Shown piece by piece: positions 33,965 through 41,403 of a stretch of DNA of 64,000 bases. The stretch lies in NCBI GenBank assembly GCA_031270325.1, contig JAISXW010000006.1:1-64000 (forward strand). The letters run 5' to 3'. Source of the stretch: Streptococcaceae bacterium (GTDB taxonomy: Bacteria; Bacillota; Bacilli; Lactobacillales; Streptococcaceae). Position numbers and translations under genes: made by a program. The notes below the pieces were generated by a model. It was not told the origin of the DNA. It was given only the letters and a program-made list of their open reading frames with translations, and ran no database searches. Position 1 is the first letter of the stretch. Every line of letters starts with the position of its first letter.

Positions 33965-34190
33965 AACCATATGCAATTATCGCTTCTTGATTTAATTCAG
34001 GTTTTGTCCACTTCAACATTACGTTCCGAGCGGCACCTTTAGAAAACATTCCTCCGGGATCCTCACCTCTGAAAAATATTTCACCCGTTTTACGATTGAT
34101 AGAACCTGTCAAAATTGGACTAGTTTCTGAAACTCTAAACTCATAATTCATTAAACCATCTATGATTCCTACATATTTAATTTTAATCAT
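33963..34190 (-). CDS. Immunity-like small protein, partner of the phage-head gene
   Basis: 75 residues. The ATG overlaps the last eight bases of the phage minor head gene, so it is translationally coupled to it. The last 17 residues and about 90 bp of DNA including the stop region are nearly identical to the gene at 2322, while the first half has diverged. A gene in this position after a head protein with a toxin-like C-terminal domain is normally an immunity protein; this is inference from context. Confidence 0.6.
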   Translation of the reverse strand: MIKIKYVGIIDGLMNYEFRVSETSPILTGSINRKTGEIFFRGEDPGGMFSKGAARNVMLKWTKPELNQEAIIAYG

Positions 34191-35430
34191 GTTTTTTCAA
34201 GCTCCTTTCCCATTTTTTCCGTTCAAATTCATAATTATATTTCAAGTTTGTTTTCTTGTGCGCTGGATCATACGCCATTCCTAACTCGTCCATATAATAT
34301 GCTTCTAAATTTTCATGTTCCAACATCAAGACATCATGCTTTAATGGTTTTGATGTGTTGAGACGAATTAACGACTGCGTCATATCGAACGAAGGGTCAA
34401 AATGTCTTACCTTTTCGATATACTCGCCATTTTCCCATATACCTAACATATATTGACTATCTAGGATATGAGATAACGCTGTCGAAACAACCTTTTTATC
34501 AAGATTAGAAACCTCAGAAAATTTATTAACTAAGCGTTCTCTATCTGAGTTTCTCAGTTGATCATAATAACGTTCAGCAACTTCTATGCGTTTTGTCTGA
34601 TACGGGTCATTCTCATCATTCAAAGCACCACTCGACCTATTTTTATTATAACCCTTTTCTCCTAAATTATCCAGCCGTTCATCTTCATCCACCGCAGCCA
34701 TCACAGCACATCGACAATTCGGGTGCATCGGGAACATATTCACGCCGTACTCAGCCTTATCCCTGTCAAACGTCTTACCGTCTAAAGGGCTACAAATCGA
34801 ACAAGCACCCGGCTCTGCTATCCACTCGTATTTATCAATGCCAGCCTGTTTGTAGCTGTCCATAGTCACGTCAGCTTGCACACGAGCGCTTTCGGTTCTC
34901 ATCAGCCGTTCAGCTTCCGCACGGCTCACATCAAACATCTTACGCACATCACGAGCCACATCATTAGGATGCCTGCCGTTAATAATTGACTGCGTCAGGA
35001 AAGTATCCAAACGATTATTCAAAGCGTTCGTGCTAGACCATATCCGATCGCTAAACGTCGCATTATGAAACGACCCGTTGATGATATGCTTGACATCGCT
35101 TGTGTCCAACGTTTTCAGCGTATCACCTAAGATACCAGCCTGCCGTCGATACTCAGCCTTAGCCTCATCAGTCAACGTCTTACCGAAATACTTCTCGACA
35201 TAGACACCGTTGGCAAATAAATCCAAACGTATCTCATCTTTGAGCAACTCAAGCCGAGACACCTTCATCTTCATGTTGTACATCGACATGAGCTGATTGG
35301 CGTACTCTGAAAAATCCTTATCCTCAACCATACGCTTGGTAACATCAGCCAAGGCCTGAACGTCTGTGTGCTTAGCTATTTGCTTGACTGTCGAAAGGCT
35401 TATCTCGTTATCTATCGCATATTTCTGATA
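34183..35430 (-). pseudogene. Phage minor head (MuF-type) protein with toxin-like C-terminus, 5' end lost
   Basis: Open on the minus strand from about 35440; the ORF track starts at an internal TTG, but the homologous frame continues upstream (GFYQKYAIDNEISLSTVKQ) until a stop at the junction with the next gene. The MuF/head-morphogenesis domain is clear: RTESARVQADVTMDSYKQAG, then CSICSPLDGKTFD and FPMHPNCRCAVMA. The last 140 residues form a separate domain (KVRHFDPSFDMTQSLIRL, HDVLMLEHENLEAYYMDELGMAYDPAHKKTNLKYNYE) of the type fused to phage head proteins and LXG-like toxins. A start codon and the N-terminus are missing. Confidence 0.7.
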
Positions 35431-35446
35431 AAATCCCGCAATACTC

Positions 35447-36613
35447 GTGGCTATTCATCCGGCTCTACCTTCTGTATCCGGTATGAAATCGCCGCAACAG
35501 GCGCTGAATGAGACGGTCATGAAGTGGTTCGACAAGGGGTTCTATGGCTTTACAGATAAAGCTGGACGCAAGTGGCGGGCAGATGTCTATGCCAGAAACA
35601 TCATTACATCAACCAGCTACCGTGTCTATAACGAAATGCGGACACGGGCGAGCGAGGAGATGGGTGTTGAGACCTTTTACTACTCGAAAAAAGCGGCGGC
35701 TCGTCCAGCCTGTGCTGGTTTGCAGCATCGGATCGTGACGAAAGGTGCAGCTTTTACCGAAAAAGGTGTCGAGGTATTGAGTTTGCTTGACCACGGTTAC
35801 GGAGAAGCTGGTGGGTGCTTGGGTATCAACTGCAGGCACACGCTCACACCGTTCATCATTGGTGTAAATCAGCTACCTGATCAAGCCGAACACCTGAAAG
35901 ACATCACGCCTGAGCAGGCGATTGAAAACGGCAAGCAGCAGGCAAAGCAACGAGCGTTCGAGCGAGAAATCCGCAAGAATCAAGAGCGCCTGAATGTCGC
36001 AAAGCAGCTGGATTATGTCGATATGATTGATAAGTTCAAGGCGAGAGCGAGTTATCTGCAGGGTGGCTTGAATCAACTTTTGAAAGATAATCCCTTTCTT
36101 TATCGGGATACGATGAGAGGGCGGTTGTTCAAAGGCGATTATCTCGAAGAAGTGCGCAAAAACCTACAAATCAGGCGTGAAAAGATGTATAATAGGTTTA
36201 ACGAACGAATGGACTCGCCTGTGACTCGAGCGCAGTTTGAAAACTTGATGAGTCGGGATCTCATGCGCATCTCTAAAGTGATGGACGAACATCAAGAAAT
36301 TGGCGATCGTTTGCAGTTGAGGGAATATAAGCAACGGCAACATGCGTTAGACACGACGGAGTACTTGAAACGCGTGGATAGCGGCGGAACGCCGAGTTAT
36401 TTTACGATTAGCGAGGAAGAAGTTTACAATATGACATTGGAAAACATGAATATGATGAGACTGTTTTCTGATTTTCAATATTTTAATTCAGATGTCTATG
36501 GCGGATTTGATGCCAAAAGTCAAACTGTCACCAATCGAATTAAAGTCCATCAGGCATACGGCAAAAGAAAAGGACTTCACATGGCACCGACAGAAATAAA
36601 GGAGAGAAAATGA
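35447..36613 (+). pseudogene. Phage minor capsid protein 2-like C-terminal part with variable tail, 5' end lost
   Basis: 388 residues open from a GTG, with a stop codon a few codons upstream and no ribosome binding site. It resembles the C-terminal part of phage minor capsid protein 2: TSTSYRVYNEMRTRASEEMG, RPACAGLQHRIVTKG, YGEAGGCLGINCRHTLTPF and the helical segment DITPEQAIENGKQQAKQRAFEREIRKNQERL. The last 70 residues (YFTISEEEVYNMTLENMNMMRLF ... NRIKVHQAYGKRKGLHMAPTEIKERK) look like a separate basic effector-like domain. It is joined head to head with the MuF fragment. The following small gene overlaps its stop (ATGA). Confidence 0.65.
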
Positions 36614-36852
36614 CATTTAAAGAGCTATGGGAATTGACTAGCGATCCATTTATTCACGTTGGGGATCATATCAAGGTAACGCTAGTCAACGGAGCGGAAA
36701 AAACAGGGTACTATGCGGAACTTGAGTACGAGTTTGATAACGATGTGGCAGATGGTCTAAGGTTTGAAAAAAGAAAAAACGAGGATACTTGGGGGAATGG
36801 TATTGTCATCCCCGCAACCGACATCCAAAACGTCGAACTATTACCTGATTAA
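36610..36852 (+). CDS. Small acidic protein, immunity-like
   Basis: 80 residues, ATG overlapping the stop of the phage-capsid gene. The first part is an SH3-like beta barrel-type sequence (GDHIKVTLVNGAEKTGYYAELEYEF), the whole is acidic (pI low by composition). Overlap with a basic C-terminal domain suggests a toxin/immunity pair; function not shown. An AT-rich stem with a T-run follows at 36861-36885. Confidence 0.6.
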   Translation: MTFKELWELTSDPFIHVGDHIKVTLVNGAEKTGYYAELEYEFDNDVADGLRFEKRKNEDTWGNGIVIPATDIQNVELLPD

Positions 36853-36961: not shown

Positions 36962-36989
36962 CTGTCGGGTGTGCCTATGCGGGTAAAAG
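36962..36989. repeat. Degenerate outlying CRISPR repeat
   Basis: Seventeen bases (GCCTATGCGGGTAAAAG) are identical to one half of the CRISPR repeat; the other half is lost. It lies 190 bp before the first perfect repeat. Read in the likely crRNA orientation (minus strand) it lies past the leader-distal end of the array, where a decayed last repeat is expected, but the gap is far longer than a spacer. Confidence 0.75.
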
Positions 36990-37017
36990 CGTGATTAACT
37001 CGTTAAGATCTAGCTGT

Positions 37018-37046
37018 TTGATTGTTTTTTGTTTTAGTGCTATAAT
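37018..37046 (+). promoter_or_regulatory. Promoter between degenerate repeat and CRISPR array
   Basis: TTGATT and TATAAT with exactly 17 bp between them on the plus strand. No ORF follows, but a terminator-like structure does. Confidence 0.65.
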
Positions 37047-37052
37047 GAATTT

Positions 37053-37147
37053 ATAAAAGAGCGTTGCGTATACGTGATCCCCTGATTGTATGAATAGAAC
37101 ACATTCACACATACGGATTGCGCCATGCCAACGCTTTTTTTATTTTT
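37053..37147 (+). ncRNA. Candidate small RNA next to the CRISPR array
   Basis: Starts about seven bases after the -10. AGCGTTG (37060-37066) pairs with CAACGCT (37129-37135), which is followed by TTTTTTTATTTTTTT, giving a closed RNA of about 90 nt with a Rho-independent end. Inside, TGATCC can pair with GGATTG and GTATGAAT with ATTC/ATAC around a short loop. No known family recognised. Confidence 0.55.
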
Positions 37148-37179
37148 TTCTTTGGAATACGTCCTTCAAATCATCCCCA

Positions 37180-38246
37180 GGATCACCCCCGCCTATGCGG
37201 GTAAAAGTCCAATATCTCAATCTCAATCGCATAGCACTTAAGGATCACCCCCGCCTATGCGGGTAAAAGAACGGGGCTAGTGTCTGGAATGGAAGTGGCG
37301 TGGGATCACCCCCGCCTATGCGGGTAAAAGATTCTTTGTTGGAATACGGCGTTAAAATGGGTAGGATCACCCCCGCCTATGCGGGTAAAAGGAATTGCTG
37401 ATAGTCATACTTGAGTTCAATTCAGGATCACCCCCGCCTATGCGGGTAAAAGTAGCATAACTGACCGGTACACTTGGCACGCTCGGGATCACCCCCGCCT
37501 ATGCGGGTAAAAGTTCAGCAGTTAGTTTCTGTAATGCCTTGCCACGGGATCACCCCCGCCTATGCGGGTAAAAGTAAACTTGCCATTAGCAAATGTCCCA
37601 GAGAGCAGGATCACCCCCGCCTATGCGGGTAAAAGCAACTAACAATCGTTCATTTACTGGTTAGAAAAGGATCACCCCCGCCTATGCGGGTAAAAGGGTA
37701 AGTTTGGCGTGAAAATCTTGTCCATCTCAGGATCACCCCCGCCTATGCGGGTAAAAGAATTCTAACCTACCGTCTTTAAGCTCGACGACAGGATCACCCC
37801 CGCCTATGCGGGTAAAAGTACAAGTATACAGGTTTTTGACGACCTAGACCAGGATCACCCCCGCCTATGCGGGTAAAAGCCGTCGAAGAGAAAGCCAACG
37901 CAGACCAACGCAGGATCACCCCCGCCTATGCGGGTAAAAGTCCTCCCTATCGCGGTAATATCTGACGACCTGAGGATCACCCCCGCCTATGCGGGTAAAA
38001 GTTGATAGACTGAATAAGCGTTTTGGCTTGAACGGGATCACCCCCGCCTATGCGGGTAAAAGTTAGACGATATGAGAATTATTCAGCAAAAACTAGGATC
38101 ACCCCCGCCTATGCGGGTAAAAGAAACACCTAGACAAATATCCTGATGACAATGAGGGATCACCCCCGCCTATGCGGGTAAAAGCAAACTATCATTAACA
38201 GCGGCTTCGCTACTGGCGGGATCACCCCCGCCTATGCGGGTAAAAG
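37180..38246 (-). CRISPR. Type I-E CRISPR array, 18 repeats
   Basis: Eighteen apparently identical 28-bp repeats (plus strand: begins GGATCACCCCCG, ends GCGGGTAAAAG) with 17 spacers. Repeat starts are 61 bp apart (33-bp spacers), except the first interval of 62. The repeat has the I-E stem (CCCGC/GCGGG) and closely resembles the S. thermophilus CRISPR4 repeat read in reverse complement, so crRNA is most likely made from the minus strand with the newest spacer near 38246 beside cas2. Only 20 bp separate that repeat from the cas2-dnaQ stop codon. No spacer visibly matches this window. Confidence 0.97.
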
Positions 38247-38266: not shown

Positions 38267-40541
<2,275 letters not shown>

Positions 40542-41403
40542 CTCCTTAAATGATTGTCTTTTTTATCTAACCACACAAGTGTGCCGTCAACTTGATAGTT
40601 CAAGTGTCATGATAAAAAAGACTTTATTTGTTGTGCTGTGCAAACAGATGAGTCATGAGTGCCGTCTTCTTTCTATTTTTCCTATCCTGTACCAAATCAT
40701 GATACACCTCACCTGTCACACATCGCACCCCGCCAATTTACTTTTTGACGGCATTTCTTGACTTCTTCGTTGGTAATTCTGATGTTTACCGACGATTACG
40801 GCATTTTAATTTTGCAAATGGAAAAGACTGATGTTTCTGCTTTCAAGTGCAACAGACCTCCTCCACCATGGCAATATTAAAACTTACCGTTTTATTTTGC
40901 TTGATACTATAGTGTGCATTCTTAACCTCCGTGATTAAGAGTCTCTGAAAACTCAATGTCTCGCCCTGATCGCTTGATTGACCTCTAGTTAGGTAAGTGA
41001 TAAAAGTCATATCCTAGGCGACTCAGGAGTTTTTCAGATTCCCTCAAGTAAATTTGAACCACTTACCTTATCCCATTATTCATTTTTTTAAACTTTTTTT
41101 CAACTATTTTGACTTGACACCCCATTAACCCCTTATTTATGGTGATTTTTTTGAAAAACACGCCACTTCATCGTATAGAAATGGATAATAAAACAGCTCA
41201 ACCTTTAGATGATAGCTGCTATAAATAAAAGGTCGCTTGTGATTAAAAGATTCAGCTAATAATTCCTGTCAGTCCTGATTTGCCTGTGGTCAGATTTATC
41301 TCCCGAAATCTTATCGCCCGCACTCTTTACCTTATCTTCGACGATATTTAAAGCATCAACGATAACATTTTTGACCAGCTATCTCTTTATTGACGTTTTT
41401 TAG
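40542..41403. other. Long intergenic stretch, probably decayed DNA
   Basis: No ORF with homology or a ribosome binding site. A good Shine-Dalgarno (AAGGAGG) next to 40541 belongs to the truncated DUF916 gene. The rest appears to be remnant sequence between that gene and the IS66 fragment. Confidence 0.5.

What the first reader, a model, noticed from the sequence alone, without database searches (positions are those of the whole stretch)
36962..37179. Candidate small RNA gene between a degenerate repeat and the CRISPR array
A promoter with ideal 17-bp spacing, no ORF, and about 90 nt later a closing stem plus strong T-run. It lies between a half-conserved repeat and the first perfect repeat, so an element of about 190 bp occupies the place of a spacer. 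Known: CreTA-type RNA toxin-antitoxin pairs in type I loci use degenerate repeats near small RNA genes, but those lie inside cas operons and need Cascade. Here only the arrangement is similar. Other possibilities: a relic insertion, or a regulator of array transcription, convergent with the crRNA.
Basis: partly seen in the sequence, partly recalled or inferred. Interest (0 to 1): 0.62.

Follow-up and report, generated by a model that had tools for sequence, protein, structure and literature searches.

The report
Orphan hairpin-RNA unit ending dead CRISPR
A 190-base stretch carrying a real-looking promoter and a terminator hairpin sits where the oldest CRISPR spacer should be, in a Lactococcus-like array that has lost most of its cas genes; it could make a 95-base RNA, but it has no relatives, fails the tests for a CRISPR-controlled toxin RNA, and is probably a captured bit of DNA.

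Summary
The observation largely holds. A sigma-70 promoter (37018-37046, TTGATT-17-TATAAT, extended -10), a rod hairpin (37055-37140) and a T-run form a compact unit that could encode a ~95-nt RNA. It lies between a degenerate repeat (36962-36989) and the array's outermost perfect repeat. By orientation (crRNA on the minus strand, leader beside cas2) this is the oldest, leader-distal end, not the start. The host is a Lactococcus piscium-group MAG. Its I-E locus is a relic: the cas3-to-cas6e operon and the first ~73 residues of cas1 are missing, and Cas7e and Cse1 were not found in the 70%-complete genome.

CreTA-type biology is not supported: no Cascade found, no pseudo-spacer, no PAM-supported seed match to the promoter, no similarity to the repeat above chance. 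No homologue appears in the genus, the 337-genome family set, Rfam, phages or plasmids, so base-pair conservation cannot be tested. The hairpin is no stronger than ordinary terminators in the window. Related I-E arrays show over-long repeat-flanked intervals holding phage DNA. The best reading is a captured or inserted piece of DNA that happens to carry a promoter-hairpin-terminator unit, possibly transcribed, of unproven function. Low interest.

The parts
36962..36989 (-). degenerate terminal CRISPR repeat; crRNA-sense 5' 17 nt intact, 3' 11 nt diverged
   Evidence: the same kind of 3'-degenerate terminal repeat ends arrays in L. piscium-group relatives
36990..37179 (.). 190-nt interval in the place of one 33-nt spacer; unique in the genome, no homologue found
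37018..37046 (+). sigma-70-type promoter, TTGATT-17-TATAAT with extended -10
   Evidence: near-identical promoter stretches before a tRNA gene (L116) and before other genes (L111, L010) in relatives
37053..37147 (+). predicted ~95-nt hairpin RNA (start inferred from the -10 position; not shown to be transcribed)
37055..37140 (+). imperfect rod hairpin, 32 pairs including 4 G-U; closing stem and T-run act as a predicted terminator
37147..37179 (-). 33 nt next to the last perfect repeat, similar to the spacer at 37331-37363 (possible remnant of a true spacer)
   Evidence: family D3; 0 of 2000 shuffles as similar
37180..38246 (-). I-E CRISPR array, 18 perfect 28-nt repeats, 17 spacers of 33-34 nt
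38267..39169 (-). cas2 fused to a DnaQ/DEDDh exonuclease
39173..39919 (-). cas1 lacking its first ~73 residues, joined to a WxL-interacting-protein fragment (39858-40541); rest of the cas operon lost here
35447..36852 (+). phage minor-head gene fragment and the small gene after it, abutting the distal end of the array

Best explanation
A 190-bp piece of DNA occupies the leader-distal spacer position of a decayed type I-E array. It carries its own promoter, a rod-like hairpin and a terminator, so it could make a ~95-nt hairpin RNA on the plus strand that stops before the array. Most likely it is captured or inserted DNA: either an over-long spacer or a small insertion in the last spacer. Its source would be a mobile element or chromosome that carried a short regulatory or antisense RNA, or an attenuator leader. 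In its present place it acts, if at all, as a free-standing small RNA and incidental convergent terminator, not as part of the CRISPR machinery. Shown: anatomy, uniqueness, decay of the cas locus, over-long phage-derived intervals in related arrays. Inferred: transcription, origin by capture, any function.
For: Interval of 190 nt where 33-34 nt is the rule. Compact promoter-hairpin-T-run unit with promoter stretches of the same kind before a tRNA gene and other genes in relatives. Closest relatives (L. piscium group, G002) step 61 nt to the degenerate terminal repeat and have no such element, so it is probably a later addition here. Precedent in related Cas2/DEDDh arrays: a 102-nt AntA antirepressor fragment between two perfect repeats (L051), a 368-nt excisionase-like segment (L067), a 318-nt phage-protein segment (L022). 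The 33 nt next to the repeat resemble another spacer.
Against: No source sequence found in phages, plasmids or IMG/VR. No target-site duplication or convincing terminal inverted repeats. The Cas2/DEDDh trimmer is described as measuring a 23-bp duplex (PMC10284694), which argues against easy capture of 190 bp. No conservation to support function.
Confidence: 0.45

Rival explanations
1. No RNA gene: a bidirectional terminator hairpin at the end of the array with a fortuitous promoter beside it; it ends the pre-crRNA on the minus strand and any convergent transcript on the plus strand.
For: Both strands fold well (z about -6 plus, -3.75 minus over the hairpin) and the minus-strand stem is followed by UCUUUUAU. 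Hairpins this strong are common in the window. My rough estimate is about 0.3 such promoter-terminator pairs per window by chance; three with an extended -10 were seen.
Against: The loop is far larger than in a normal intrinsic terminator (0 terminators by the simple scan). The promoter is a good one whose close relatives drive genes elsewhere.
Confidence: 0.3
2. Leader-attenuator fragment: promoter plus terminating leader of a gene whose body was lost when the array end and phage fragments were rearranged.
For: Promoter directly followed by a terminating structure is the layout of attenuators; both sides of the locus are deletion-scarred.
Against: No Rfam riboswitch or leader match; repeats flank the unit on both sides.
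Confidence: 0.1
3. A regulator of the array: an RNA fully complementary to the pre-crRNA tail that limits read-through or promotes processing.
For: Geometry: it is transcribed convergently to the array and would be perfectly antisense to any read-through transcript.
Against: The complementarity follows from position alone. Relatives with fuller systems lack it. The array has no processing machinery at this locus.
Confidence: 0.07
4. A CreTA-like RNA toxin-antitoxin: the hairpin RNA is a toxin repressed by Cascade guided from the array.
For: Degenerate repeat nearby; the adjacent spacer (37208-37241) matches 10 of 11 seed bases at the -10 box.
Against: Seed mismatch at position 3; flank TGT instead of the AA seen in two protospacers of a sister array. 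Such 10/11 sites occur 14 times in the window, about the number expected. No Cascade found and its operon is deleted, which should have released a toxin. No pseudo-spacer and no repeat similarity.
Confidence: 0.03

Closest known systems
CreTA RNA toxin-antitoxin modules of type I CRISPR-Cas (PMC8501985, PMC9458426)
   Same: small RNA gene near a degenerate repeat at a type I locus
   Different: no pseudo-spacer, no PAM-supported seed match, no Cascade, at the distal array end rather than at the cas operon, no repeat-like sequence in the RNA
Type I-E arrays with Cas2/DEDDh (trimmer-integrase, PMC10284694)
   Same: the array and cas2 are of this kind; relatives also hold over-long intervals near or inside arrays
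   Different: here cas1 is truncated and the effector operon is gone; the over-long interval is non-coding with a promoter and terminator
Stand-alone rod-hairpin small RNAs such as plasmid antisense control RNAs (from general knowledge)
   Same: strong promoter immediately before a single rod hairpin ending in a U-run, 80-100 nt
   Different: no sequence match to any plasmid or phage, no target gene on the opposite strand

Membership tests
CreTA (CRISPR-regulated RNA toxin-antitoxin) | pseudo-spacer flanked by one or two degenerate repeats, transcribed as a crRNA-like guide | tested here: not met
   the half repeat has no repeat-like partner within reach; the 190-nt interval shows no repeat similarity above shuffles
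CreTA (CRISPR-regulated RNA toxin-antitoxin) | guide seed (nt 1-5, 7-11) pairs with the toxin promoter next to a PAM | tested here: not met
   best site 10/11 with a mismatch at nt 3 and flank TGT; sister-array protospacers have AA; 14 such sites in 64 kb, about chance
CreTA (CRISPR-regulated RNA toxin-antitoxin) | functional Cascade in the same cell | tested here: not met
   Cas7e and Cse1 families absent from the genome and operon deleted at the locus; caveat: genome 70% complete
CreTA (CRISPR-regulated RNA toxin-antitoxin) | RNA is toxic when derepressed | not testable with these tools
   needs an expression test
Type I-E CRISPR array | 28-nt palindromic repeats, ~33-nt spacers, cas1-cas2 next to the leader, Cascade operon | tested here: inconclusive
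   repeats, spacers and cas2-DEDDh met; cas1 N-terminally truncated, Cascade missing
Known Rfam small RNA | covariance-model match at the gathering score | tested here: not met
Small insertion element (MITE-like) | terminal inverted repeats, target duplication, several copies in the genome | tested here: not met
   single copy; no duplication, only a 9-nt 8/9 inverted match
Structured non-coding RNA under selection | compensatory changes in homologues | not testable with these tools
   no homologue in genus, family or order samples; the one weak order hit is an ordinary terminator next to a gene

The most novel reading that the evidence does not exclude
A dedicated small-RNA module stationed at the leader-distal end of a I-E array, regulating or addicting the cell to the array, possibly one case of a wider habit of placing toxin-antitoxin or RNA modules between the terminal repeat and a solitary outer repeat (protein toxin-antitoxin pairs lie there in L013 and L017).
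Probability: 0.04. Interest if true: 0.7.

Novelty: new member of a known kind. Interest (0 to 1): 0.2.

Why it matters
If transcribed it would be one more orphan small RNA. The more general point is that I-E arrays with Cas2/DEDDh can carry over-long, repeat-flanked foreign intervals, so a structured element in a spacer's place need not be a CRISPR regulator. If the RNA did act on the array, it would be a new kind of array-end control, but nothing found here requires that.

Tried and rejected
CreTA: rejected on seed, PAM, pseudo-spacer and Cascade tests. Repeat mimic / crRNA-like RNA: the shared GTGATCC heptamer is chance level. MITE or IS: single copy, no duplication or useful inverted ends. 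Conserved RNA: covariance model from the single sequence, two identical rows, searched in genus, family and order; only an ordinary terminator beside a gene at E 0.009. Phage or plasmid source: nothing convincing. Type I toxin-antitoxin: read by eye, no hydrophobic peptide; only a 28-codon minus-strand frame without a Shine-Dalgarno. The 23-nt match to G009 is a shared promoter before an unrelated gene. The structure scan of the window used a 20-nt grid and few shuffles; it did not list this hairpin at its -4.5 cut although direct tests give -4.6 to -6, so its counts are approximate. Literature searches for over-long spacers found nothing directly relevant.

Full report
Setting. The window belongs to a 1.47-Mb, 40-contig, 70%-complete genome. 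The Cas2 protein is closest to Lactococcus piscium (68%), L. reticulitermitis and L. plantarum. The array 37180-38246 has 18 perfect repeats and 17 spacers of 33-34 nt. The repeat reads CTTTTACCCGCATAGGCGGGGGTGATCC on the minus strand, the crRNA sense of I-E repeats, and cas2 with its DnaQ/DEDDh domain (38267-39169) lies at the high-coordinate, leader side. The finding at 36962-37179 is therefore at the oldest, leader-distal end.

State of the CRISPR system. Compared with L. piscium (L012), which has a full cas3-to-cas2 operon, cas1 here starts at about residue 73 and is joined to a WxL-interacting-protein fragment. Families for Cas7e and Cse1 are not found anywhere in the genome (caveat: 70% complete). 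The array is an orphan or relic.

The observation. The degenerate repeat 36962-36989 keeps 17 of 17 nt of the crRNA-sense 5' part and is the only repeat-like site outside the array in 64 kb. Degeneration of the 3' part of the terminal repeat is the normal end of these arrays. The promoter is TTGATT-17-TATAAT with an extended -10. Several weak family-wide matches to its sequence are themselves promoters: one directly precedes a tRNA gene (L116), others lie just upstream of genes (L111, L010). The hairpin 37055-37140 has 32 pairs (11 G-C, 17 A-U, 4 G-U), -30.4 kcal/mol, z about -6. The minus strand is weaker, -2.1 to -3.75 depending on frame. Stable structures are not rare here: 25 clusters reach -4.5 in a coarse scan (see Tried and rejected for its limits), and other promoter-terminator units exist. 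It is a good candidate unit, not an exceptional one.

Conservation. DNA searches of 60 relatives and of 337 genomes of the family, and the covariance model over the genus, 198 family genomes and 398 order genomes, found no homologue; nor did Rfam, phages, plasmids or exact IMG/VR scans. Related arrays in the genus (L096, L098) step 61 nt to the terminal repeat and lack the element, as does L099, which has a solitary outer repeat; L014 ends with near-normal repeats. As far as sampled, the element is specific to this lineage.

CreTA test. In CreTA a guide with degenerate repeats pairs through nt 1-5 and 7-11 with the toxin promoter (PMC8501985). I tested all 17 spacer seeds against the element: two reached 9 of 10 where 0.14 were expected. 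One, the spacer next to the element, covers the -10 box with 10 of 11 matches. But it mismatches at nt 3, lacks a PAM (flank TGT; two sister-array protospacers have AA), and such 10/11 sites occur 14 times in the window, about the chance number. With Cascade gone a CreT-like toxin would be unrepressed. I do not file it as CreTA.

Origin. No copies, target duplication or terminal repeats. The 33 nt beside the last perfect repeat resemble another spacer (0 of 2000 shuffles), in a register shifted by about 3 nt, so it may be a remnant true spacer cut by an insertion. A survey of related Cas2/DEDDh arrays shows over-long repeat-flanked intervals: L051 (102 nt, AntA antirepressor, between perfect repeats near the leader), L067 (368 nt, excisionase-like), L022 (318 nt, phage protein), L032 (2363 nt, PBECR4/LPD25 protein), and beyond the terminal repeat L013 and L017 (RelB-toxin pairs) and L054 (phage head/Ntox50). 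Foreign DNA in or at such array ends is thus not unusual. The trimmer-integrase is described as measuring a 23-bp duplex (PMC10284694), so whether such intervals arise by integration of untrimmed DNA or by later insertion is open.

Conclusion. A captured or inserted promoter-hairpin-terminator unit, possibly a small RNA gene, in a dead array; function unproven and CRISPR-related function unlikely.

Noticed in passing
L013:12540-13495 and L017:11309-11953: RelB-type antitoxin plus toxin (PemK/MazF-like; YafQ) lies between the terminal repeat and a solitary outer repeat of I-E arrays in two genera; by eye a HicB-like gene lies just past the array in L043. Possible toxin-antitoxin niche at array ends; not tested against the genome-wide density of such genes.
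   Followed up: partly
L051:11019-11120: A 102-nt spacer encoding an AntA antirepressor fragment sits between two perfect repeats at the second position of a Cas2/DEDDh I-E array: a real over-long spacer.
   Followed up: partly
L032:12970-15332: 2363 nt encoding a PBECR4/LPD25 polyvalent protein lie between two perfect I-E repeats in Streptococcus ratti.
   Followed up: partly
window 34183-36852: Two phage minor-head gene fragments in opposite orientation, both lacking their N-terminal parts, abut the distal end of the array; L054 has a similar phage head fragment at its array end.
   Followed up: partly
window 39173-40541: cas1 lacks its first ~73 residues and is joined to a WxL-interacting-protein fragment, marking a deletion of the whole upstream cas operon.
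   Followed up: yes
window 41159-41169 (+): An 11/11 seed match of the spacer at 37270-37302, preceded by AAA, with no match beyond the seed; 0.5 such seed matches expected by chance in the window.
   Followed up: partly
window 47482-47312 (-): Another promoter followed by a strong terminator hairpin, upstream of the carA/carB region; probably a pyrimidine-operon leader.
   Followed up: no
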